Shown: positions 24,063 to 34,752 of the stretch, one piece after another
Numbering within the stretch: the first letter of the stretch is position 1
Layout: each line of letters begins with the position of its first letter
DNA from: Paenibacillus sp. JZ16
GTDB taxonomy: Bacteria > Bacillota > Bacilli > Paenibacillales > Paenibacillaceae
NCBI RefSeq assembly: GCF_015326965.1
Contig: NZ_CP017659.1
Location: forward strand, 2,728,001-2,792,000
DNA: 64,000 bases
Direction: 5' to 3'
Notes under the pieces: generated by a model
Databases searched by the model: none
Told to the model about the DNA's origin: nothing
Seen by the model: only the letters and a program-made list of their open reading frames with translations
Made by a program: the position numbers and the translations under genes

Positions 24063-24443
24063 TCAATTATAAATATTATATTTTTTAGCAATTACCCATC
24101 CATTAAGACCATATGAAGCTGAAATTACATAATAGTTATACTTTTCATTTTGTAAATGTTCAAACAAATCTTCAATCTTTTCATAATGCATCGGCCATCC
24201 GTAATTCTTCTGTTTCTTTAACAATTCTTTATTATGTTTGAGAAATCGGCTTACATCGTATTTGCTAATATCAAGAATAATACTTCCCTGTAGCTGTGTT
24301 TCAAACATATGCGCCAGGACATCAATGAACTCGATAGTAGTGGTAACTGAATCTCCATTACCACCTAAAGTGTGCAATGTAATTCTAGATTTTTGAAAAT
24401 CAACTTCATAGGAAACAATTTCATTGTCATGAATACTACGCAT
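24063..24443 (-). CDS. Putative immunity protein (third in the array), no adjacent toxin
   Basis: About 126 residues, from ATG 24443 with AGGAGGTG upstream: MRSIHDNEIVSYEVDFQKSR..., SIILDISKYDVSRFLKHNKE, ..., YYVISASYGLNGWVIAKKYN. There is no signal peptide or membrane segment. I recall small proteins with this MxSIHDNxxxSYxVD opening next to polymorphic toxins, so an immunity role is inferred from context and memory; no named domain is claimed. It lies downstream of the orphan toxin module and its immunity gene, separated by a terminator. The matching toxin tip is not present. Confidence 0.6.
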   Translation of the reverse strand: MRSIHDNEIVSYEVDFQKSRITLHTLGGNGDSVTTTIEFIDVLAHMFETQLQGSIILDISKYDVSRFLKHNKELLKKQKNYGWPMHYEKIEDLFEHLQNEKYNYYVISASYGLNGWVIAKKYNIYN

Positions 24444-24627
24444 TTTTCTCCCACCTCCTATCATAAAAAGCAAGGTATTATTTGCTTCTTTTTGGAGAAC
24501 CACTTTATGGCTATTGTCTCACACTACTACGGTTTATGGAGGACGCGCCCTTTGTACTTGAAGCTTGGCTCCTTCCGCGACCGGACTCTCACTGGCTAGA
24601 AGATTAGCTGGGTACGTGGGATACAAA

Positions 24628-24672: not shown

Positions 24673-25110
24673 TTATAAATCCTTTCTATCAATAAATTCG
24701 GCTTCAATTACTTCATATTCTTTATTTACAGGATTCCCTCCATACTTCTTGAGAATCTTAATGATAACGTTATAAAAGGCAAATTCCGGAGTTGCTCCTT
24801 TAGAGGAGTACTCTATTTCATTGTTATCACTAACGATTAGTTTATAACCTGTTCCAATATAAGATAGATTGAATTTGCAATCATTGTCCTCTAGCCAGGA
24901 CATTAAATCGAGAATACTCGGTATCCATACTCCCTTTTTATAAATCTCTTCATCGCAGAGAAATCCCGTTGATGGTAGAACCCTTCCTCCTACAACCCAA
25001 ACGGAATCTTGATATTCAAAAATGTCCTGTGGATATACCTTATCTGCATATAACGGCCTCTGAAATCCTAATTCGAACAGCTTTATTGCCTCTGTTTTTG
25101 ATATAGACAT
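24673..25110 (-). CDS. Putative immunity protein for the orphan toxin tip
   Basis: 145 residues, acidic and soluble, starting MSISKTEAIKLFELGFQRPL and ending EVIEAEFIDRKDL. No domain is recognised with certainty. It starts 16 bp after the stop of the orphan toxin module, which is the usual place for the cognate immunity gene, so its role is inferred from position. The ribosome binding site GAGGT is modest. Confidence 0.6.
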   Translation of the reverse strand: MSISKTEAIKLFELGFQRPLYADKVYPQDIFEYQDSVWVVGGRVLPSTGFLCDEEIYKKGVWIPSILDLMSWLEDNDCKFNLSYIGTGYKLIVSDNNEIEYSSKGATPEFAFYNVIIKILKKYGGNPVNKEYEVIEAEFIDRKDL

Positions 25111-25126
25111 ATCTCATACCTCAAAT

Positions 25127-25780
25127 CTACTTAATTTTTATTACTGTACCAGTAGAACTCTTGTGTTTGCCATCAATAAAATTACCATATTTGTCTGAAT
25201 CAGCAACCCAATGAAGTTCCTTACCGCCTTTCGCTTCCTTAAATACTTTGTAGGCAGAATCTGCATGTCCGGTTGTATCCTTCGCCCACCATAACCCAGT
25301 TTTAGGGTCACGATAAGCAGTAACGGTATCTCCTTTAAATTTATAAGTAATTTTTTTGTCAGCACCTGTTTTAATGTCCCATAAAACTTTGGTGTTCTTA
25401 GTACTCTTGTTACCGGCACCGTTAGCAGGTAAAAATCCCATAGCAAGCAACGCAATATATTCTGCCTCTTTTGAAACCTGGTACTCATCTAATAACTGAG
25501 CTCTTGCCCAAGACGAAATGCCTGCATTATTAGTGTAAGGGCTTGTTCCCGTTAACAAGTCGAATAAGTAATTATAACGGTTTTCTCCCATGATAGATAC
25601 AAAGTCGTACCGATCCCGTATGAAATCCTTGATGAGGGTTAAGTTCTTTCGAGATGCATCGACCGATTCATTCGGCACTGGGTGGTGAAGTAAAGAAAGA
25701 CCTTGAAGGAATTGTTCCCCCAAGGTCAATAATAATGCTTTATTATTACACTTTTTCGACAAACACTCCCATTCTTTCAA
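25127..25780 (-). CDS. Orphan Rhs C-terminal toxin module
   Basis: 217 codons without the Rhs shell. Residues ~50-130 (DFIRDRYDFVSIMGENRYNY ... ANGAGNKSTK) are identical or nearly so to residues 1409-1487 of the full Rhs protein. The next ~87 residues are a different tip: NTKVLWDIKTGADKKITYKF, then WWAKDTTGHADSAYKVFKEA and HWVADSDKYGNFIDGKHKS. From memory the TGH...AYKVFKE...ADxDKYGNFIxGKHK pattern is a recurrent toxin domain, but I cannot name it safely. It lacks a secretion signal and a convincing ribosome binding site, and its ATG 25780 overlaps the end of the upstream immunity gene. Probably it is a silent cassette that can replace the expressed tip by recombination. Confidence 0.75.
   Translation of the reverse strand: MKEWECLSKKCNNKALLLTLGEQFLQGLSLLHHPVPNESVDASRKNLTLIKDFIRDRYDFVSIMGENRYNYLFDLLTGTSPYTNNAGISSWARAQLLDEYQVSKEAEYIALLAMGFLPANGAGNKSTKNTKVLWDIKTGADKKITYKFKGDTVTAYRDPKTGLWWAKDTTGHADSAYKVFKEAKGGKELHWVADSDKYGNFIDGKHKSSTGTVIKIK
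25397..25631 (-). repeat. 235-bp direct repeat, copy in the orphan module
   Basis: Matches 26536-26770 over all 235 bases; the one difference I found by eye is at ...TATATTCTGCC versus ...TATATTCCGCC. It encodes the pre-toxin segment. Confidence 0.95.
25692..25729 (-). terminator. Terminator between the first immunity gene and the orphan module
   Basis: GACCTTG (minus strand, 25721-25727 arm) pairs with CAAGGTC (25699-25705 arm), then TTTCTTTAC. It lies just past the immunity gene stop and inside the reading frame of the orphan module, which supports that module being silent. Confidence 0.7.
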
Positions 25781-26267
25781 TATCGAGAACTATTGATTCG
25801 ATGGGTTGGGCTGTATGAATTCCCATTAGATAATCGTATCCAATAAAAACTCTCATCACATTCTCGCAATACACATCAGCTCCGATATCTTCCCTCAGCA
25901 ACAGTCTCACCACAGGTCCAATTTCTTGAGCAGATAGTTTCGTGTTGTCAACAAGATTGTAATATGCATCTCTTATCTCGTTATTGTTATATAGCGGTTG
26001 ATATTTCGTAACAACTTTTTCGAATTCTTCTTCATTCGAACCTTTTCTAATATTACTTACTGTAAGATGAGATACATTCAAATAATTCATAATTGTTCTT
26101 ACGGTATTTACATAGTTATCTTCAACTGACTTGTAAAGTTCAACCGTAAGTAACTGGCCATCAAAGGTTTTTCCTATATCGCTTATCGCCGTCCAATCTT
26201 CTTTCGAATATCTGCCAGTACTTCCCCTAAAAATAGGGTTGTACTTTGAAATACGATACTTATTCAT
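25746..26267 (-). CDS. Immunity protein of the expressed Rhs toxin
   Basis: About 173 residues: MNKYRISKYNPIFRGSTGRY, then SKEDWTAISDIGKTFDGQ and a helical middle (NNEIRDAYYNLVDNTKLSAQ). The ATG at 26267 begins one base after the rhs stop (TAAAATG), with AGGTGAT inside the rhs end as ribosome binding site, so translation is coupled. I recall proteins with the NKYRISKYNPxxR opening and a DWTSxSDIGK segment as partners of Ntox21-type toxins. It should bind and neutralise the tip in the cytoplasm. Confidence 0.78.
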   Translation of the reverse strand: MNKYRISKYNPIFRGSTGRYSKEDWTAISDIGKTFDGQLLTVELYKSVEDNYVNTVRTIMNYLNVSHLTVSNIRKGSNEEEFEKVVTKYQPLYNNNEIRDAYYNLVDNTKLSAQEIGPVVRLLLREDIGADVYCENVMRVFIGYDYLMGIHTAQPIESIVLDIERMGVFVEKV

Positions 26268-26268
26268 T

Positions 26269-29200
26269 TTAATCACCTATTCTTTCCAAGTTTCCATCAT
26301 ACGTGCCCATCCGTGTATCCTTCTTATTCAATGCCTCAGGTGATTTTGCCATTTTCCATACCCCCCCATTATGAGGACCACTACCATCACCACTGCCAAT
26401 ATCCTGACTGATATAGGTTTTAGTTTTCTTATTATAGTATATCCTTTCACCATTTTTAGCAGTGTAGTTCGTCGGTTCATAACCTAATTTCTTAGCCGCA
26501 TCAGTAGATTGTTTTGTAGTCATCCGAACCCAAGCCTTAGTACTCTTGTTACCGGCACCGTTAGCAGGTAAAAATCCCATAGCAAGCAACGCAATATATT
26601 CCGCCTCTTTTGAAACCTGGTACTCATCTAATAACTGAGCTCTTGCCCAAGACGAAATGCCTGCATTATTAGTGTAAGGGCTTGTTCCCGTTAACAAGTC
26701 GAATAAGTAATTATAACGGTTTTCTCCCATGATAGATACAAAGTCGTACCGATCCCGTATGAAATCCTTGTATATCTTATAGTATTTGTTTTTTCTGTTG
26801 GATTTCGATTTTTCCTTGGCTTCATCGAGTAAATTTTTCAGTTCTACTTTATCCGAGGTTTCAAATGCAAAATGCCCACTCGGGTCAATATACCTCAACG
26901 GATTATTATGCACATACGTATATAGATTTTGGCTCAGTGGATTCGTCAAAGTCCCTTCATACGTATCCTCGCCCATAAACCGTGCCGTTCCCGGATCGTA
27001 CCAGCGGGCACGCAGGTACTGCAGGCCCGTCGTATCATCCCAATACTCGCCGGCGTAGCGCATCACGTTCGGAACGGTTTCCTTGGTTTCAACTGGGCCA
27101 CCCCAAATATCATAGGAGTAACTGTTTAGCTGCTTACCCTGCTCATCCACCAGACCGACAACATCGCCGTGACCGTTGAATTCGTAGTACTGCAGTTTGC
27201 CAGTTGCTCTATCTTGCCTTGCGGTTAACTGACCGTACAAGTCGTAGACATAGGCATAGGTAAGGGTAACATGGCTTCCGGTGACTTCCGCTTCTGCAAT
27301 CAGTTTAGCTTCCTCGTCAAAGTAATAACGCGTCGTATCCGTGCCTTCCTTACGTTCATACAGCAATCCGTCGCCGTTGTAAGTGTAGCTGACTTCCTTG
27401 CCTTCTCCTGCGACCTGCGTTAAACGGTTCTGGCTGTCGAACGTATAATCTGCTTCCTTCAGGCCGAAAATCTTGCCGCTTCCCTGCTCCAGCCGGTTCC
27501 CGTTAGCGTCATACGTATAACTTAAATTCTTGTCACCTGATGTTTCCGTCTGAATCCGGTTCAGCGGATCGTAGGTGAATTGTCCTGACGTTCCGTTCTC
27601 CGTGCGGGAGATGATATTTTTGTTCGGGTCATAGCTATATCCGAATTCGTGCACGGATGTGCTTCCCTGCTGAACGGTTACGCCTGACAAGTCATATCCG
27701 TCATAGCTAAAACCGGTACTGAGCCCACTATCAAAGCTTCGGCGCTCCAGCAAACTGTTAGCCCCATATTCAAAGGTCATTCGATCCAGCGGAGAAGCTG
27801 ACATCAAGGAAGGGCCACTGCTTCCTGTGCTGATATCCATCGCCGAGACCCGATTCATTTCATCAAGCTTAGAAGATATGCGAATGGATGCTCCGGCAGC
27901 GTCCGTCAGGATATATCCTATTTTCGACTGCGTATTATATTCATACGATACCCTGGTTCCGTCCGGAAACTCCAGTTCCTTCAGCGTCCCATCCTCAGGA
28001 TTGTAAGAATACGTCGTCTTACCTGTTGGATCGGTCATACTGGTCCGGCGGCCTGCATCATCATAGGTGTAATTCACCGAGAAATCCGGTCCGCTCTTTG
28101 AAATAAGCTGATTCTCGGAGTCATAACCAAAGTTATAGATTTGGTTCTTACGGTCCACCACTTGCGTTACGTTGCTTCGGTTGTCGTACTGGTAGACCGT
28201 GGTTTGATTGGCCATATCAGTCTGGCTGATCAGGCGGCCCATCTCGTCATACGTCTTCGTTACTTTCTGTTGGTCGGGCAGCACAACCTGAACCAGATCA
28301 CCAGCCAGACTATAAATATAGCGGGTAACCTCTCCCTTCGGATCCTTCACCGAGGTCAAGCGGCCCAGCACGTCGTACGTATACTCGGTGCGCTGCTGTT
28401 TGCCGTCAATGGATGCCGTCACCTGACCGAGCAGATCGTATTCCAGATGCTGAAGCGGCGTAAACCCTCCATTTTTCCACTCTTGCGTTGATATTGTTCT
28501 TCCCAGTACATCATAGGTTTCACGCTGTTTGTTTCCAGCAGCGTCGCTATACGTGGTTGTCCGTTCCACGACCTGATAATCCGTGCTGCTGCTGGTTCCA
28601 TCAGCGTATACCGTTTTCGTGTTTCTTCCAAAAGCATCATACGTCAGGCTCGTTGTGTTGCCTTCGGCATCGGTCACTTCCGTCATGTTGCCTTCATCAT
28701 CATATTCATACTCGTATAACGCATCATGCGTTTTTTCCTGCACCAGCAGCCCAAACGGATCATACTGCTCTGTCGTAATCACGCCGTCCGGTGCTGTCTG
28801 AGTGACGCGATTCAATGCGTCATCGAAACGAATGGTCGAAAGCGTGCCGTCACTGTATTCAAGCTGGGTGATTCTACCCCATTTATCATAAGTGTACGTT
28901 TGCACGTTTCCGTCGCTATCTCTCTGGCTTTTGAGCTGTCCTGTCGGCCAATATGAATAGTCCGTCGTAATTACGGATGACTGTGAGGCAGCGTCCTTCA
29001 CGACCATGCTTTGGTTTGTCAGCAGATGACGTCCATACTCGGACTCGTATTTATACGTCTGTTCAATAAATCGTGAATCGTCCCTGACTTTGGTTTTTGT
29101 CCGGTTTCCATAAGTGTCGTACTCATACTCGGATTGAGCAAGCGGTGTTCCGCCCATTCCTTGCGACACGACCTCTTTCGTTACACTGCCCTGCACGTCA

Positions 29201-30996
29201 TATTCCAGATGTGTAATCTGAGACTGCGTGTCGTTCATTTTGACGGTTACCTTGGAAGGTTTCTTCCACTCTGCTGTACCCGTCATATGCTGGTATTCAT
29301 AGCTTGTTTCCTGGCCGGTGCTTGATCTCTCCGATGTGATTAGACCATATTCATCATAGGTATACGACGTGGAAACAGGCTCGGAAGCTGCACCATTTTG
29401 AATATATCGTTCTTGGATCTGCTGCGGTGCATTTCGTTTGTTCGTCTCATCGTAGGTATACTCTTCGATATAACTAACCGAATCTCCCGATTGGCGATAA
29501 TCCTGCAAGTAGTGAAGCGCCGGACTGGAGCTTCCTTCAAAGGTACTGCTCAGCTTGTACGTTTCGGCCCATTTACTGCTGCTTACGGTCGTGGTCCAGT
29601 TCACATCTCGTCCGTAACGATTCAGGTCTTCACCCGTATACTCAAAGCTGCGGGAACCCAGTATTTTTTCACCCGATGTCGAACTGAATGTATCCTTGCG
29701 GGAGCTGACCTTAAACACATGCCTGGTGGCAAAATCTCCGATCTGTTTCAATGAGGCTTCATATTGAATATCGGTGATCCGGGATGTTGGGTATACGATA
29801 CGAGTCAACAGAACCGTCCCGTCAGCTTCATGCTGTTCTGACTGGCCCACCAGCCCGGATAGGAAATTAAAACTCGACACCGGATGGTTGTACACATAAG
29901 TCGTACTTCGCGACATGGAGTCAATAACCTCTGCCAGAAGCGTGTAGCCTTCCTTCTGAACCTTGCGATATTCCACGCTTTGGTCCGTTCCCTCCAAAAC
30001 CACAGAAAGACTCAATGTATGATGGCTGAATTGGAGAGTATTTCCTTCACTATTCGAAATCTGCTTTAATACAAGCCCCTCAGGCAGCTGATCGTATAAA
30101 AAGCTCACCGTGTTGTTATAGTGGTCTTTGATTTGTAGCAGATAACCTTGAGCATCAAAGTAGTAAACATAATCATTGAGAACTGTCAGTTTGTATTCAC
30201 TTGGTTGTCCATTTACGGTTACGCTTTGATCCGTTCTCAGAGCCATGTCATTCCAGTTATACCCTACAATGTCTAATGAATCAGACAAGGCGTAGGAGCC
30301 GGCTCCAGGAAAATACAAATAACGTTTACCACCATGCTCTTCAATATGGGGGAGATCCCATCTCCAGCCCCGACCAATGCCGTAAGATGACTCTTCTCTT
30401 CGCATGCTAGTGTCATTCACGGCCTGTCCAGTTACCTCATCCTGTCGGATTCCGATCTCTTCGTTCGCCTTCGAGCTGTCGTATACCCGTGTTAATGAAA
30501 ACGGGATCATACCCGGAAGCTCCAAATCCACGCTCGCATAATTTAAATCACCGGTAGCCATAGAGACCGAATCTTGACCGTAGCTGTTGAAGTAGGCCGA
30601 CGAGTCGTCATGGATTCGTACCTGCTCAAGAGCCGCCTCGTCCACGCCGTTTGAATCTTCAGCCAAGCTTTTTAATGATGACACCACAGCCTTCTCATCA
30701 TATTGCACAACATCCGGTACCTGTATATTGGCCAGAACGGTATCGGCTGCTTTTGAGCTCTTCTTGCCGCCCAGAGATGAGTATATCTGATACAAGGTAT
30801 ATCCATCCGCGATCTTTTCTTGAACCCAAGCGGTGTCTACACCATACTGCTGAGCCAACATCGGAATCGTAATCGCAGATGAAGAAATCTCTCTTGAATT
30901 GGCTGTTACCTTGCCGCTGTCTCCATATACCAGAGAGCCCATATTTCCCAATAGTAAACTTATACATAAAACAGTTATAAATCCTCTTTTGAACAC
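26269..30996 (-). CDS. Secreted Rhs/YD-repeat polymorphic toxin with Ntox21-like tip
   Basis: 1575 residues. Sec signal peptide 1-26 (ITVLCISLLLGNMGSLVYG); a DUF6531-type segment near 145 (SMATGDLNYASVDLELPG); about twenty YD repeats (YxYDxxGRL pattern) from ~480 to ~1300 that should form the Rhs cocoon; the RHS core at 1311-1375 (LQYLRARWYDPGTARFMGED ... NPLRYIDPSGH). A pre-toxin linker lies at 1409-1487. The final 88 residues contain AAKKLGYEPTNY, DIGSGDGSGPHNGGVWKMA and TRMGTYDGNLERIGD, which resemble the Ntox21 family as I remember it, a predicted RNase. GTG start with GAGGTGA upstream. It follows the repeat protein gene by 30 bp and is coupled to its immunity gene. The likely role is contact-dependent killing of rivals. 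Confidence 0.92.
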   Translation of the reverse strand: MFKRGFITVLCISLLLGNMGSLVYGDSGKVTANSREISSSAITIPMLAQQYGVDTAWVQEKIADGYTLYQIYSSLGGKKSSKAADTVLANIQVPDVVQYDEKAVVSSLKSLAEDSNGVDEAALEQVRIHDDSSAYFNSYGQDSVSMATGDLNYASVDLELPGMIPFSLTRVYDSSKANEEIGIRQDEVTGQAVNDTSMRREESSYGIGRGWRWDLPHIEEHGGKRYLYFPGAGSYALSDSLDIVGYNWNDMALRTDQSVTVNGQPSEYKLTVLNDYVYYFDAQGYLLQIKDHYNNTVSFLYDQLPEGLVLKQISNSEGNTLQFSHHTLSLSVVLEGTDQSVEYRKVQKEGYTLLAEVIDSMSRSTTYVYNHPVSSFNFLSGLVGQSEQHEADGTVLLTRIVYPTSRITDIQYEASLKQIGDFATRHVFKVSSRKDTFSSTSGEKILGSRSFEYTGEDLNRYGRDVNWTTTVSSSKWAETYKLSSTFEGSSSPALHYLQDYRQSGDSVSYIEEYTYDETNKRNAPQQIQERYIQNGAASEPVSTSYTYDEYGLITSERSSTGQETSYEYQHMTGTAEWKKPSKVTVKMNDTQSQITHLEYDVQGSVTKEVVSQGMGGTPLAQSEYEYDTYGNRTKTKVRDDSRFIEQTYKYESEYGRHLLTNQSMVVKDAASQSSVITTDYSYWPTGQLKSQRDSDGNVQTYTYDKWGRITQLEYSDGTLSTIRFDDALNRVTQTAPDGVITTEQYDPFGLLVQEKTHDALYEYEYDDEGNMTEVTDAEGNTTSLTYDAFGRNTKTVYADGTSSSTDYQVVERTTTYSDAAGNKQRETYDVLGRTISTQEWKNGGFTPLQHLEYDLLGQVTASIDGKQQRTEYTYDVLGRLTSVKDPKGEVTRYIYSLAGDLVQVVLPDQQKVTKTYDEMGRLISQTDMANQTTVYQYDNRSNVTQVVDRKNQIYNFGYDSENQLISKSGPDFSVNYTYDDAGRRTSMTDPTGKTTYSYNPEDGTLKELEFPDGTRVSYEYNTQSKIGYILTDAAGASIRISSKLDEMNRVSAMDISTGSSGPSLMSASPLDRMTFEYGANSLLERRSFDSGLSTGFSYDGYDLSGVTVQQGSTSVHEFGYSYDPNKNIISRTENGTSGQFTYDPLNRIQTETSGDKNLSYTYDANGNRLEQGSGKIFGLKEADYTFDSQNRLTQVAGEGKEVSYTYNGDGLLYERKEGTDTTRYYFDEEAKLIAEAEVTGSHVTLTYAYVYDLYGQLTARQDRATGKLQYYEFNGHGDVVGLVDEQGKQLNSYSYDIWGGPVETKETVPNVMRYAGEYWDDTTGLQYLRARWYDPGTARFMGEDTYEGTLTNPLSQNLYTYVHNNPLRYIDPSGHFAFETSDKVELKNLLDEAKEKSKSNRKNKYYKIYKDFIRDRYDFVSIMGENRYNYLFDLLTGTSPYTNNAGISSWARAQLLDEYQVSKEAEYIALLAMGFLPANGAGNKSTKAWVRMTTKQSTDAAKKLGYEPTNYTAKNGERIYYNKKTKTYISQDIGSGDGSGPHNGGVWKMAKSPEALNKKDTRMGTYDGNLERIGD
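26536..26770 (-). repeat. 235-bp direct repeat, copy inside rhs
   Basis: Encodes residues ~1409-1487 of the Rhs toxin, just before the tip. The second copy is at 25397-25631, in the same orientation and 1139 bp away. Recombination between them would delete the present tip plus its immunity gene and install the orphan tip in frame. Confidence 0.95.
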
Positions 30997-31026
30997 ATCG
31001 TCACCTCTATCGCATCTGATCTCGCA

Positions 31027-34000
31027 TTAGAATGGAAATACCTTTTTGCTTCGCTTCGTTACATTGCCATTGTTGTCGTATTCATATAGAATCTCATCTC
31101 CCGTACGGAGAATCACTTTAGAAAGACGGTTATTTGAGCCATAGTGATACTTGTTTTCCGCGGCTAGAATCATTAGAGCAGAATTGATCACCCCTTCAAG
31201 AGCGGTTCCATCTTTCTCTATTAGCTTTAAATAGTAAACCTGGCCCGCTTTGAGCTCCCATTCCAAGACGGTGTAATCCCAACCATGCTCTCTCACCTGA
31301 TCAACAGTCGTAGCCAGTTCATCAGTCAGTCCAGCATCAGCGTACAATGTCACTTGAGGCTCCTTCTCGAAATTCTTGCTCTCCTTGACAACAAATCGGT
31401 ATAATCCATCCGCCTCCGGTTTAAATCGATAGTAGTTCTCTTGCTTCTCTTTTAGATCGATGTCCTCTGCTCTCCGTTCCACCAGGTCGATGAACTTGTC
31501 CGTCATTTCAGTAAAAATAAAGCTTCTGGATGGTCCTGCAAAAAGTACGCCTTGAGGTGAAGACACGGTCACTTCCAGACTTGCACCATTAGGCACGACT
31601 TGTTCCTCATCCGTTCCGGTTGCCTCCCTCAGAACGTTTCCGCTCGCGTCCAGCAGCCGATAATCATAATACCGGTCTGAGACAACAGATGCATCCGTCA
31701 GCAGCTTCGCCTCAAATTGGCCCGTATTCGTAAAGCTTCCCAGCTCTCCAGCAGCAAGTTCCTTCTTAAGTAACGCCTTCTCATCGCTGGCCTCTGCAGT
31801 AACTGGTATCGAATACTCATAGATAATGGACTCCGCTGAGGTTACAGTTACCACAACCACACCGCCCCCAGGAATGATAATCTCCTGATCAACGGAATTG
31901 ATTTGAGCTTGTTCCGGTTTATTCCCCGGGCTGTATACTACATAATCGTAAAAGCTCTTTCCTTCAAGAGCGTTCGACTTCATCCGTTGACTGGTTGTTC
32001 CCGTGTTGGTAAAGATAACGCTCTCATGCTGTCTTACGGTTATCTTTTCTCCCACCGGCTCCTTAGCAGGTTCTGCCTGGAATAGTCGATATACGGCCCC
32101 AAACAAAACTTGACTGTCCGAAGAAACGGTCACGATCACCTTATTTCCAGGCGCAACGACAGGCTCAATGCTGGTACCTGTTCGACGATCGATTTCCTCG
32201 CCGGATCCATCATAGAGAACATAATCGAACGTACGGCCACCATTTACAGCCTTACTCACGATTGCCTTGTCGATCGTACTGATATTCGTAAATTGATAGC
32301 TCTGTCTCTGATTCAGTGTAGCTCTGTGGAATGCGGGTTCTGTGCTTGCTTCAACGGTAACATCGCCTGAGTACTCATAAAGAATCGGAACAGAAGAAGG
32401 ATTCGTGATCACGATATAAGACTGAGACGTGACTTCAAGTTTCGAGGAAATGTTAAATCCGTCCGAGAGAAGCGTTCCATTAGAACGATACAGGGCATAA
32501 TCCATAGAACCGCCCACGGTATCCGCATTGTGGCGAAGCTCAACATCAGGTCCATTGTTATAAAGAACATAGGATTCATTTGGATAGATTGTGAGATGCT
32601 CGACTACCTCGCCCGGATCATCTTGTCCGCGGAATACACGGTATAGACCACCGAAACTGACAGGTTCGTCTGAAGCCGTCGTTACGACTGCTTTATAGCC
32701 TGGAGGCACCTTAGGCTCCACCGTTACCCCCGTTCTTCGTGACTGTTCTGCTCCCGTTGCATCATAGATGATGTAGTCAAAGGTACGACCACCCGCCAAG
32801 GAAGCTGTACTGTCCAAATACTCGCTTTCCGTGCTGACATTGGTGAATGAGAAGCTTTCTCCCTTGGACAAGGTTACGCGCAGATAAGCAGGCTCTGTAC
32901 TTGGCTCCACCGTAAAATCGTCCGTATAATCAAATACGATAGGCTGGGTACCGGCTACAGTGACGGTAGCATAACCTTGTTTCGGTACCTGGGGACTGGA
33001 GCTCCGGTTAAAGGCGTCCGAAGATCGACTGCCATCCGCTTTATACATGACGTAATCAAATATCCCGTTTACTTTACTGGCATTATTCATAATGGGATTA
33101 GACAATGTCCCATGGTTACGGAATATATAGGACTCCCCGGGATTGAGGGTAATCTGACTGATCGCCTCGTTAGGCCTACCACCGCCTTGGAACACGGTAT
33201 AGATGGCACCAAAAGTCACCGGGTTATCCGACACTGCGGTTACAACTGCCTTGTTATTTGGATACACTTTGGGTTCAACGCTTGTCGCTAGTCCTCGCGA
33301 ACGTTCAGTCCCATCTTCGTAATAAGTAACATAATCAAATAACCGACCGGACGAAGAGGAAGCGTCGCTGTCCAAATATTCGAGACTGCTACTAATATTC
33401 GTAAACTCGTAACTCTCCCCTCGATATAGAGTCACCCTTTCAAATGCAGGCTCCGCACTTCCTTCAACCGCAAAATCATCGGTATAATCAAACACGATGG
33501 GTGTATTTCCGATGTTCGAGACAATCGCGTATCCCAATGAAGGAATGCTCGGGCTCCCTTTTTGATTAAATCCACTTCTGTATATGGTATCGTCGGGATT
33601 ATAAATGACATAATCAAATAAGCCGCCGACGTTACTTGCATCATTCCGGATGGGATTCGTAAGCGATCCATTATTATAAAAAACATACGTATCTCCCGGA
33701 TAAACGGTTATCCGGCTAATGGCACTTCCTCCTGTGGGCCGTACATCAAACGTTCGGTATGGGACGCCGAATGTAACAGGTGTCGCCGTAACCATCGTAA
33801 GTACTGCGGTACGTCCTGCTGCAACACTAGGTTTATTTGACGTATTCGTTCCTCTTGAGTACTCAGTTCCATCCGGTAAATAAACCACATAATCGAAACG
33901 ATCACTGGACTTGCCGTCACTTTCCAGCGTATCCGTCTTCGTGCTCACATTCGTAAATTGATAGCTTTGTCCTTGATTCATTATGATCCTCGTATACGCC

Positions 34001-34752
34001 GGTTCCGCACTGTACTCCCCGTTAAACATATCGTATGGAAACCCCACGGTAACCGGGTTGATCGTAGCCCCGGTAATAATGATTTCATTCCCTTCGCCTA
34101 CCGCCGGCTTTGAGACACTGTTAAAATCAGAGCTGTCTAGTGTGCCGTCCGGAGTATATTCAGCATAATCGTAACGCTTCTCCTGGCTGCTGGAAGCATC
34201 GCTTTGCAGATTAAGGGACTGATTCCCCTCATTCGTAAAAATATAGCTTTCTCCCTGATGAAGTGTAATACGATGGAGTGCTGGTGTCGAGGATAAGGAA
34301 TACGTCACTTCAGGAAAAATGGAGAACGTAACTGGGAACATCCCCGAGACCGTAATGATGGTGGTAGCTCCCTTTGTCTGAGAAACATTCCCGCCGTGAT
34401 TCATATCCTCACCCGTAATTCTGCCATCTGCATTAAAAGTTACATAGTCAAACACAATTCCCTTTGAAGTTGACCCATTATTTGTAATGGACTTGGTTAA
34501 GGTGGACGTATTATAAAATCTGTAAGATTCGCCTGGGTATAAAGTTACCTCTCTTTTTTCTGCAAGCAATTCTACATTTGAATTATGATATACAGCATCC
34601 GTAACACTGGGCGGCGCCACTACTTCCGGTACCATCTCTTCTTCGTTAGGTTGCTGAACTCCCTCAGCTATTGATATGGACGGATTCCATCCGTTAAGAC
34701 ATAATGCAAATACCAACAGCCATGGAATCATTCGGTTTCTCTTAGACTTCAC
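31027..34752 (-). CDS. Large secreted repeat protein with a terminal YD repeat
   Basis: About 1241 residues from GTG 34752, chosen because AGAGGAGG lies eight bases upstream; an ATG at 34779 precedes that site. Signal peptide ~1-31 (MIPWLLVFALCLNGWNPSIS). Eleven tandem ~92-residue units follow (residues ~69-1085), each with an ITLxxGESYxFTN opening, DYVxYxxDG in the middle and a VTFG/IVFDY end. Units alternate between two subtypes, so the true period is about 185 residues. Next comes a beta-sandwich-like region (ENYYRFKPEADGLYRFVVKE ... VYYLKLIEKDG) resembling bacterial pre-peptidase C domains, then a single YD repeat (ILYEYDNNGNVTKRSKK). It is cotranscribed with rhs. Function unknown; a surface stalk or partner for the Rhs toxin is my inference. 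Confidence 0.82.
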   Translation of the reverse strand: MKSKRNRMIPWLLVFALCLNGWNPSISIAEGVQQPNEEEMVPEVVAPPSVTDAVYHNSNVELLAEKREVTLYPGESYRFYNTSTLTKSITNNGSTSKGIVFDYVTFNADGRITGEDMNHGGNVSQTKGATTIITVSGMFPVTFSIFPEVTYSLSSTPALHRITLHQGESYIFTNEGNQSLNLQSDASSSQEKRYDYAEYTPDGTLDSSDFNSVSKPAVGEGNEIIITGATINPVTVGFPYDMFNGEYSAEPAYTRIIMNQGQSYQFTNVSTKTDTLESDGKSSDRFDYVVYLPDGTEYSRGTNTSNKPSVAAGRTAVLTMVTATPVTFGVPYRTFDVRPTGGSAISRITVYPGDTYVFYNNGSLTNPIRNDASNVGGLFDYVIYNPDDTIYRSGFNQKGSPSIPSLGYAIVSNIGNTPIVFDYTDDFAVEGSAEPAFERVTLYRGESYEFTNISSSLEYLDSDASSSSGRLFDYVTYYEDGTERSRGLATSVEPKVYPNNKAVVTAVSDNPVTFGAIYTVFQGGGRPNEAISQITLNPGESYIFRNHGTLSNPIMNNASKVNGIFDYVMYKADGSRSSDAFNRSSSPQVPKQGYATVTVAGTQPIVFDYTDDFTVEPSTEPAYLRVTLSKGESFSFTNVSTESEYLDSTASLAGGRTFDYIIYDATGAEQSRRTGVTVEPKVPPGYKAVVTTASDEPVSFGGLYRVFRGQDDPGEVVEHLTIYPNESYVLYNNGPDVELRHNADTVGGSMDYALYRSNGTLLSDGFNISSKLEVTSQSYIVITNPSSVPILYEYSGDVTVEASTEPAFHRATLNQRQSYQFTNISTIDKAIVSKAVNGGRTFDYVLYDGSGEEIDRRTGTSIEPVVAPGNKVIVTVSSDSQVLFGAVYRLFQAEPAKEPVGEKITVRQHESVIFTNTGTTSQRMKSNALEGKSFYDYVVYSPGNKPEQAQINSVDQEIIIPGGGVVVVTVTSAESIIYEYSIPVTAEASDEKALLKKELAAGELGSFTNTGQFEAKLLTDASVVSDRYYDYRLLDASGNVLREATGTDEEQVVPNGASLEVTVSSPQGVLFAGPSRSFIFTEMTDKFIDLVERRAEDIDLKEKQENYYRFKPEADGLYRFVVKESKNFEKEPQVTLYADAGLTDELATTVDQVREHGWDYTVLEWELKAGQVYYLKLIEKDGTALEGVINSALMILAAENKYHYGSNNRLSKVILRTGDEILYEYDNNGNVTKRSKKVFPF
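31500..34548 (-). repeat. Eleven tandem ~92-codon repeats
   Basis: Unit openings on the protein: VTLYPGESYRF, ITLHQGESYIF, IIMNQGQSYQF, ITVYPGDTYVF, VTLYRGESYEF, ITLNPGESYIF, VTLSKGESFSF, LTIYPNESYVL, ATLNQRQSYQF, ITVRQHESVIF, KELAAGELGSF. The sequences are well diverged, so this is an old expansion. The last two units are the most degenerate. Confidence 0.88.

What the first reader, a model, noticed from the sequence alone, without database searches (positions are those of the whole stretch)
31027..34752. Undescribed 1241-residue repeat protein ending in a lone YD repeat, cotranscribed with the Rhs toxin
Eleven ~92-residue beta-rich repeats in an alternating two-type pattern, then a PPC-like domain and one Rhs-style YD repeat (ILYEYDNNGNVTKR). 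It is secreted and just 30 bp upstream of rhs, with the same RBS/GTG start style. The lone YD repeat could dock into the Rhs cocoon, making this a stalk, cap or delivery arm for a wall-crossing toxin. I know of no named family with this architecture.
Basis: partly seen in the sequence, partly recalled or inferred. Interest (0 to 1): 0.75.

Follow-up and report, generated by a model that had tools for sequence, protein, structure and literature searches.

The report
Rhs toxin partner with docking tail
A secreted repeat protein made next to a bacterial Rhs toxin ends in one spare piece of the toxin's own shell, and relatives show unrelated surface proteins carrying this same tag near Rhs toxins, which suggests a plug-in way of fitting different front ends to one toxin shell.

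Summary
On the minus strand (34752-31027, GTG, 1241 aa) lies a secreted protein with eleven 88-94-aa beta repeats (two types, alternating from R3 on), a PPC-fold domain and one terminal YD unit; rhs starts 30 bp later. No Pfam or NCBIfam model names it. The link to rhs is close to obligatory: 39 of 40 relatives that keep the YD tail lie just upstream of rhs. The exception is a truncated relic in a genome with only an Rhs-core fragment. In fifteen fetched loci similar repeats stand N-terminal to a giant Rhs protein, with no YD unit at the junction. The main extension: the YD tail is not specific to this protein. Proteins with unrelated ectodomains (PA14, Ig-like, FG-GAP, RCC1, dockerin, subtilase, CBM-like) end in the same unit near rhs genes in this family and one further family. 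In one pair the Rhs proteins are 93% identical, the partner ectodomains show no similarity, yet the tails are 84% identical; other pairs are less clean. Best reading: a two-chain Rhs toxin whose N-terminal adaptor is a separate, swappable protein docking through a single YD unit. Partnership with Rhs is strongly supported by genomics; physical docking is inferred and untested.

The parts
31027..34752 (-). repeat protein (REP), 1241 aa, GTG start, proposed partner of Rhs
   Evidence: 74 homologs, most named ones Paenibacillus
34657..34752 (-). N-terminal signal peptide region (residues 1-32, by inspection)
   Evidence: sequence, (KSKRNRMIPWLLVFALCLNG...)
31507..34557 (-). eleven 88-94-aa beta repeats R1-R11 (residues 66-1082), two types
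   Evidence: R5-R6 model pLDDT 95.5
31171..31503 (-). PPC / collagen-binding-domain fold (residues 1084-1194)
31030..31155 (-). terminal YD unit plus KRSKKVFPF end (residues 1200-1241), proposed docking tail
   Evidence: four strands in the model
30997..31026 (-). 30-bp gap between REP stop and rhs start; holds the likely rhs ribosome-binding site, no terminator-like site
26269..30996 (-). rhs, 1575 aa, signal-like N-terminus, DUF6531, YD core, Rhs-associated core
26272..26502 (-). Ntox21 toxin domain of Rhs (residues 1499-1575)
   Evidence: E 7.7e-24
25746..26276 (-). 176-aa ORF overlapping the rhs stop by 8 bases, likely cognate immunity gene
   Evidence: position only; no Pfam family over cut-off

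Best explanation
The gene encodes the detached front end of a two-chain Rhs toxin. Both chains have Sec-type signal peptides (seen by inspection) and are probably co-transcribed (inferred: 30-bp gap, no terminator). Outside the cell, the terminal YD unit of the repeat protein adds its strands to the Rhs shell (inferred). This tethers a long rod of about eleven jelly-roll-like repeats plus a PPC domain to the toxin-filled cocoon, so the rod can hold the toxin on a surface or bring it to a target (inferred). The YD unit acts as a standard plug: in this family and one further family the ectodomain in front of it differs widely, and in the clearest pair it has been exchanged while plug and rhs stayed (shown as sequence pattern). 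Where similar repeats are fused to Rhs, no YD plug is found at the junction, and a separate small protein with one YD unit lies upstream (shown as sequence pattern).
For: (1) 39 of 40 REP ORFs that keep the tail lie just upstream of rhs on the same strand; 36 have gaps of 14-72 bp, median 31. (2) The one exception, L140, is a truncated relic whose genome has only a 90-aa-frame Rhs-core fragment. (3) In 15 of 15 fetched fusion-type loci similar repeats precede the Rhs part in one chain (L154 in pieces); the tail profile finds no YD unit between the last repeat and the DUF6531 motif in any of the 15, and 14 have a YD-bearing ORF as the next gene upstream (L154 one gene further). (4) The one fetched REP copy without tail (L114) has no rhs in 12.3 kb. 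(5) Unrelated ectodomains share the tail: 29 of 38 non-REP tail loci have an Rhs-like ORF downstream on the same strand, 17 of them adjacent; 0 of 20 arbitrary regions hold one. (6) Swap: L206 and L196 have Rhs 92.6% identical over 1450 aa, ectodomains without a BLAST hit, tails 84% identical; DNA identity is 91-94% from rhs to 100 bp upstream and 53-61% beyond 200 bp. (7) The tail (mean pairwise identity 0.58) is better kept than the PPC (0.45) and R10/R11 (0.39) next to it.
Against: No complex was modelled or measured. R3 (0.61) is as conserved as the tail, R4-R5 (0.57, 0.54) nearly so. Not all pairs show the swap: of 32 pairs with related Rhs (of 105 compared), 13 have unrelated ectodomains, with tail identities from 43% to 84%; in others the ectodomain is better kept than tail and Rhs (L170/L179: ectodomain 78%, tail 64%, Rhs 45%; L182/L178: 79%, 64%, 56%). 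7 of 38 non-REP tail loci have no Rhs downstream with at least 8 kb seen, and 2 had too little sequence; five of the 7 have an Rhs core within about 14 kb on the other side or strand, two run into contig ends. RHS repeats have been proposed to bind carbohydrate (PMC3482391, passage), which could give the tail another job. Linked genes share history, so the 40 loci are not independent events.
Confidence: 0.65

Rival explanations
1. REP and the other YD-tailed proteins are functional partners of Rhs, but the YD tail binds cell-wall or surface carbohydrate rather than the Rhs shell; the partner is a co-expressed adhesin that works beside the toxin.
For: RHS repeats have been proposed to bind carbohydrate (PMC3482391, passage seen); several ectodomains are CBM- or PA14-like; in some pairs the ectodomain is better kept than the tail.
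Against: In L206/L196 the tail stays with its rhs gene while the ectodomain is swapped. No YD unit is found at the junction where repeats are fused to Rhs. The own genome has no other YD unit.
Confidence: 0.17
2. The YD tail is a fossil: rhs loci recombine often, and the tail is a scrap of rhs coding sequence left at the end of a neighbouring gene.
For: Rhs loci are recombination hotspots (recalled); an orphan C-terminal cassette lies next door.
Against: Tail conserved at 0.58 mean pairwise identity over 24 non-redundant proteins, above its flanks, with Y, D, G and N columns near invariant; most REP proteins end in KK[VI][FY]PF within a few residues; the tail recurs on unrelated proteins in two families.
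Confidence: 0.06
3. REP is a folding or secretion helper (chaperone-like lid) for Rhs: the single YD unit templates or seals the shell during folding outside the cell, and the repeats are only a spacer.
For: One YD unit lies on a neighbouring gene in the REP loci and in the fusion loci, at a C-terminus or an N-terminus of the partner; ectodomains need not be conserved.
Against: The long repeat arrays and binding-type ectodomains are far larger than a lid needs; repeat arrays also carry HNH-, HINT- or lipase-type ends.
Confidence: 0.12

Closest known systems
Tc toxin B-C subcomplex (TcB + TcC, two-chain Rhs cocoon)
   Same: Two chains from neighbouring genes, the upstream one ending in YD sequence; some YD-tailed partners have FG-GAP repeats and a TcdB_toxin_midN match as TcB does. 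That TcB and TcC build one shell together is recalled; a passage of PMC7020563 names the TcdB2-TccC3 subcomplex.
   Different: Here the upstream chain carries one YD unit rather than a large share of the shell, and its ectodomains are of many unrelated kinds; the window protein has no SpvB, FG-GAP or TcB match.
WapA-type Gram-positive Rhs toxins
   Same: Secreted Rhs with a C-terminal toxin and downstream immunity (WapA recalled; Streptococcus suis WapA seen in search listings only).
   Different: WapA carries its wall-binding part in the same chain (recalled); here the front end is a separate protein.
T6SS Rhs effectors with PAAR/VgrG adaptors (RhsA, Tse5, Tse15)
   Same: Rhs cocoon with toxin and a modular N-terminal adaptor (recalled and from search listings); the window Rhs matches solved Rhs structures incl. 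Tse5 and Tse15.
   Different: Those adaptors are not single YD units and the delivery machine is a T6SS of Gram-negatives (recalled).
PPC / bacterial collagenase collagen-binding domain
   Different: No Pfam PPC match at sequence level; ligand unknown.
Bacterial teneurin-like proteins (PMC13018210)
   Same: YD shell with toxin and immunity genes.
   Different: Single chain; the outline and passages I saw describe no separate YD-tagged partner.

Membership tests
RHS/YD repeat (PF05593) | match over the Pfam cut-off of 22 bits | tested here: not met
   14.5 bits at residues 1206-1234. Tails of some other partners do pass, e.g. 27.8, 34.6, 37.3 bits
RHS/YD repeat (PF05593) | sequence profile shared with Rhs or teneurin shells | tested here: met
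   profile of 21 tails incl. this one hits 8h8a E 1.2e-28, 8r54 E 4.2e-12
Tc toxin TcB | SpvB domain, FG-GAP propeller and many YD repeats in one chain (features recalled) | tested here: not met
   only a sub-threshold RHS_repeat match is listed for the window protein at E up to 1
PPC domain (pre-peptidase C-terminal) | PPC fold | tested here: met
PPC domain (pre-peptidase C-terminal) | Pfam PPC sequence match | tested here: not met
   not listed at E up to 1
Rhs polymorphic toxin (the neighbour gene) | DUF6531, YD core, Rhs-associated core, C-terminal toxin | tested here: met
   DUF6531 33.2 bits, PF05593 201.2 bits, TIGR03696 71.7 bits, Ntox21 84.3 bits
known beta-repeat families (Ig, fn3, CARDB, cupin, CBM) | sequence or fold match of one repeat | tested here: inconclusive
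two-chain Rhs toxin with YD-docked adaptor (proposed) | physical binding of tail to Rhs shell | not testable with these tools
   no complex prediction available

The most novel reading that the evidence does not exclude
A single YD unit is a universal plug: Rhs shells in these bacteria accept secreted proteins of many kinds that bear it, by strand addition at a shell edge. Cells exchange the front end by recombination just upstream of the plug, mirroring the known exchange of toxin tips at the other end, so that surface, target or enzymatic equipment (adhesins, propellers, a subtilase) is combinatorial in trans.
Probability: 0.38. Interest if true: 0.9.

Novelty: new variant of a known kind. 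Interest (0 to 1): 0.8.

Why it matters
How secreted Rhs toxins of Gram-positive bacteria are held at the surface and aimed is, as far as I recall, poorly understood. This gives a concrete testable answer: a separate adaptor joined by one YD unit. If true, it would explain a large set of 'hypothetical' Paenibacillus proteins, add a front-end exchange to the well-known toxin-tip exchange, offer a bacterial two-chain relative of the Tc B-C shell, and define a small natural tag (about 40 residues) that might bind Rhs shells.

Tried and rejected
Naming the repeats: Pfam, NCBIfam and PDB sequence searches gave nothing (the NCBIfam StpK7 hit of 21.4 bits is far below its cut-off of 900). The R5-R6 model gives only marginal jelly-roll/cupin or GOLD-type matches. 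A motif for the Rhs core alone missed some Rhs ORFs, so I widened the definition (one search replaced); under the wide rule one locus counted as adjacent (L198) rests on a 1047-aa ORF. One search listed a 2852-aa frame for REP in G170, which I first took for a REP-tail-Rhs fusion; the sequence shows two ORFs 15 bp apart (L121). Genome-level co-occurrence (tail-profile hit in 113 of 151 Rhs-bearing genomes against 0 of the 20 Rhs-less genomes that were listed, of 46) is partly trivial because the profile also hits Rhs itself; I do not lean on it.

I considered REP as an immunity protein or regulator and dropped it: both chains look secreted and the immunity candidate lies downstream of rhs. A complex prediction of tail with Rhs core was not possible (single chains only, two jobs). 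Prior art: searches listed no paper that I could recognise as describing single-YD-tagged partners of Rhs. I read the outline and passages of PMC13018210 and passages of PMC3482391 and PMC7020563; all others only as search listings. Most subscription papers and all preprints lie outside that library.

Dropped before counts: L114 (no tail) and L133 (REP gene interrupted) from the 40; L207 and L209 (no lone tail of 40 bits or more) from the 38. Sets L002-L030 and L099-L140 overlap in genomes and must not be added. The 40 non-REP loci were chosen from the best hits that one search listed, not all. Some of my notes are superseded: entry 3 says 25 of 25 (recounted: 26 of 29 loci), entry 6 says 40 of 40 and 13 fusions (recounted: 39 of 40, 15).
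Full report
THE OBJECT. The gene lies on the minus strand, 34752-31027. It starts with GTG behind GAGGAGG and has 1241 codons. By inspection it has a signal peptide, then eleven repeats from residue 66 to 1082, a PPC-fold domain (1084-1194) and a terminal YD unit (1200-1241). Repeat starts are 91-94 residues apart and the last repeat is about 88 aa. Two types alternate from R3 on: like types share 37-55% among R3-R9, unlike types 17-41%; R1 and R2 break the pattern. The neighbour rhs (30996-26269) starts 30 bp after the stop and carries DUF6531, YD repeats, the Rhs-associated core and an Ntox21 toxin tip. There is no terminator-like site in the gap, so co-transcription is likely but inferred. 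In the whole 7.42-Mb genome, the only matches at E 0.001 to the tail profile and to PF05593 are in these two adjacent genes.

LINKAGE TO RHS. Of 29 loci found in named genomes, 26 have rhs directly downstream on the same strand. The other three are a contig end (L014), a truncated relic (L029) and an edge fragment (L030). From 394 genomes of the family I fetched 42 REP loci (L099-L140). Leaving out L114 (no tail) and L133 (gene interrupted, tail half still next to rhs), 39 of 40 have rhs downstream: 38 by core motif and L106 by BLAST match. Gaps are 14-72 bp, median 31, in 36; L106 overlaps by 4 bases; L124 and L137 have broken rhs genes. The exception, L140, is a truncated relic (the same genome as L029); that genome's only Rhs-core match over the cut-off is in a 90-aa frame, so stalk and toxin seem to have decayed together. 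The two sets overlap in genomes.

TAIL AND RHS GO TOGETHER. Of 74 homologs, 64 end in the YD unit. Of the 10 that do not, five are truncated, shifted or partial, three share an HNH-type end (two are named so by their source), one is HINT-type and one lipase-type. The one locus of this HNH-type end that I could see (L114; end like P0060, no Pfam match) has no rhs in 12.3 kb. That is a single case.

FUSIONS. In 15 of 15 fetched fusion-type loci (L064, L065, L143-L154, L158) similar repeats (8-15 per chain over the threshold) stand N-terminal to an Rhs part. In 14 this is one chain (cut by a contig end or missing an N-terminal piece in some); in L154 the gene is in pieces. In none of the 15 does the tail profile find a YD unit between the last repeat and the DUF6531 motif. 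A PPC is absent from the two junctions I read (L064, L065); in the others 108-295 residues lie between the last detected repeat and the motif, and I did not test them for a PPC fold. In 14 of 15 the next gene upstream has a YD unit near its N-terminus (15-38 bits; 238-265 aa, 593 aa in L150); in L154 a repeat fragment intervenes before a 315-aa one. Most have signal-like N-termini by eye.

THE TAIL IS A SHARED TAG. The tail profile finds hits in 228 of 394 family genomes at E 1e-6 (this includes YD units inside Rhs). Most of the best listed hits lie in frames too short for Rhs. Their ectodomains are unrelated: PA14, Ig-like N_BRCA1_IG, FG-GAP with a TcdB_toxin_midN match, RCC1 propeller plus fn3, dockerin, subtilase, CBM-like and several without Pfam match. 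I fetched 40 such loci; 38 have a lone tail of 40 bits or more. In 29 of 38 an Rhs-like ORF lies downstream on the same strand: 17 adjacent, 6 with only YD-bearing genes between, 6 with other genes between. In 7 none is seen within at least 8 kb and 2 had too little sequence. Of the 7, five (L174, L175, L176, L197, L201) have an Rhs core within about 14 kb on the other side or strand; L177 and L181 run into contig ends. Control: 0 of 20 arbitrary 18-kb regions from 19 such genomes hold an Rhs-like ORF and 0 of 342 ORFs match the tail profile. Outside the family, 20 stretches were fetched from hits with shorter frames. Twelve have lone-tail proteins, all in one further, unnamed family (f23; scores 29-36 bits); in eight of the twelve a long Rhs (1731-1897 aa) follows within 0-327 bp, in four none was seen adjacent. 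The other eight stretches hold Rhs pieces. That the window's family is Paenibacillaceae is inferred from the names of homologs.

A NATURAL SWAP. L206 and L196 have Rhs proteins 92.6% identical over 1450 aa. Their adjacent partners (496 aa with RCC1 and fn3; 241 aa with no named ectodomain) show no BLAST similarity outside the first 40 and last 50 residues, but the last 45 residues are 84% identical. DNA identity is 91-94% from rhs back to 100 bp upstream, 74-78% from 100 to 200 bp, and 53-61% beyond, about the level of unrelated sequence in this alignment. L205/L196 and L204/L196 show the same with weaker tails (70%, 59%). This is not universal: of 105 pairs, 32 have related Rhs; 13 of these have unrelated ectodomains, with tail identities of 43-84%; and in L170/L179 and L182/L178 the ectodomain (78-79%) is better kept than tail (64%) and Rhs (45-56%). 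So exchange in front of the tail is shown in the L206/L196 case and suggested in others; whole-partner inheritance also occurs.

CONSERVATION. Over 24 non-redundant REP proteins (of 42) the tail has mean pairwise identity 0.58, the PPC 0.45, R10 and R11 0.39, the signal region 0.31; R3-R5 are also high (0.54-0.61).

READING. Partnership with Rhs is as firm as genomics can make it (about 0.9). That the YD unit is the joint is the best explanation (0.65; lowered by 0.01 and the novel reading by 0.02 after rechecking, because of the pairs that do not show the swap). That it joins by strand addition to the shell is inference from how YD repeats build shells and from Tc B-C pairs (recalled; one passage). 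What the repeats bind is unknown.

NOVELTY. Six searches of the open full-text library listed no paper that I recognised as describing single-YD-tagged partners. I rate it a new variant of a known kind (two-chain or adaptor-fitted Rhs toxins) rather than a new kind.

Noticed in passing
window 25127-25780 (-): Orphan Rhs C-terminal cassette: repeats 79 residues of the pre-toxin region of the window's rhs, then ends in a different, unnamed toxin-like tip; further immunity-like ORFs follow at 24673-25110 and 24063-24503.
   Followed up: partly
window 25727-25699, 24660-24629, 24045-24019 (-): Three strong terminator-like hairpins, two of them close in sequence (CCTTGGGG...CAAGGTC TTTCTTT), spaced among the toxin/immunity cassettes; could mark cassette junctions.
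   Followed up: no
L143-L154, L158, L064, L065: Small proteins with a YD unit soon after a signal-like N-terminus, some with CBM-like matches, precede the fetched repeat-Rhs fusion genes.
   Followed up: partly
L068, L071, L171-L173, L181, L186: Clusters of several different YD-tailed and YD-headed proteins in a row, most of them beside an rhs gene (none seen in the L181 stretch), as if one toxin had many alternative partners.
   Followed up: partly
L155:11804-14392 (-): A subtilase (S8) with a YD tail 56 bp upstream of a 2183-aa Rhs: an enzyme, not an adhesin, on the tag.
   Followed up: no
L133:1411-6023: REP gene interrupted inside the PPC region by about 1.2 kb; the tail half remains open next to rhs.
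   Followed up: no
L061:4606-5499, L062:3640-4533: A 297-aa protein, alike by eye in both loci, lies between a YD-tailed protein and rhs in a second locus type; the L061 copy has no Pfam match.
   Followed up: no
L066:5649-11177, L067:4778-10303: 1841/1842-aa proteins match the PPC region twice and carry a HINT-like segment (by inspection), in another toxin-like locus.
   Followed up: no
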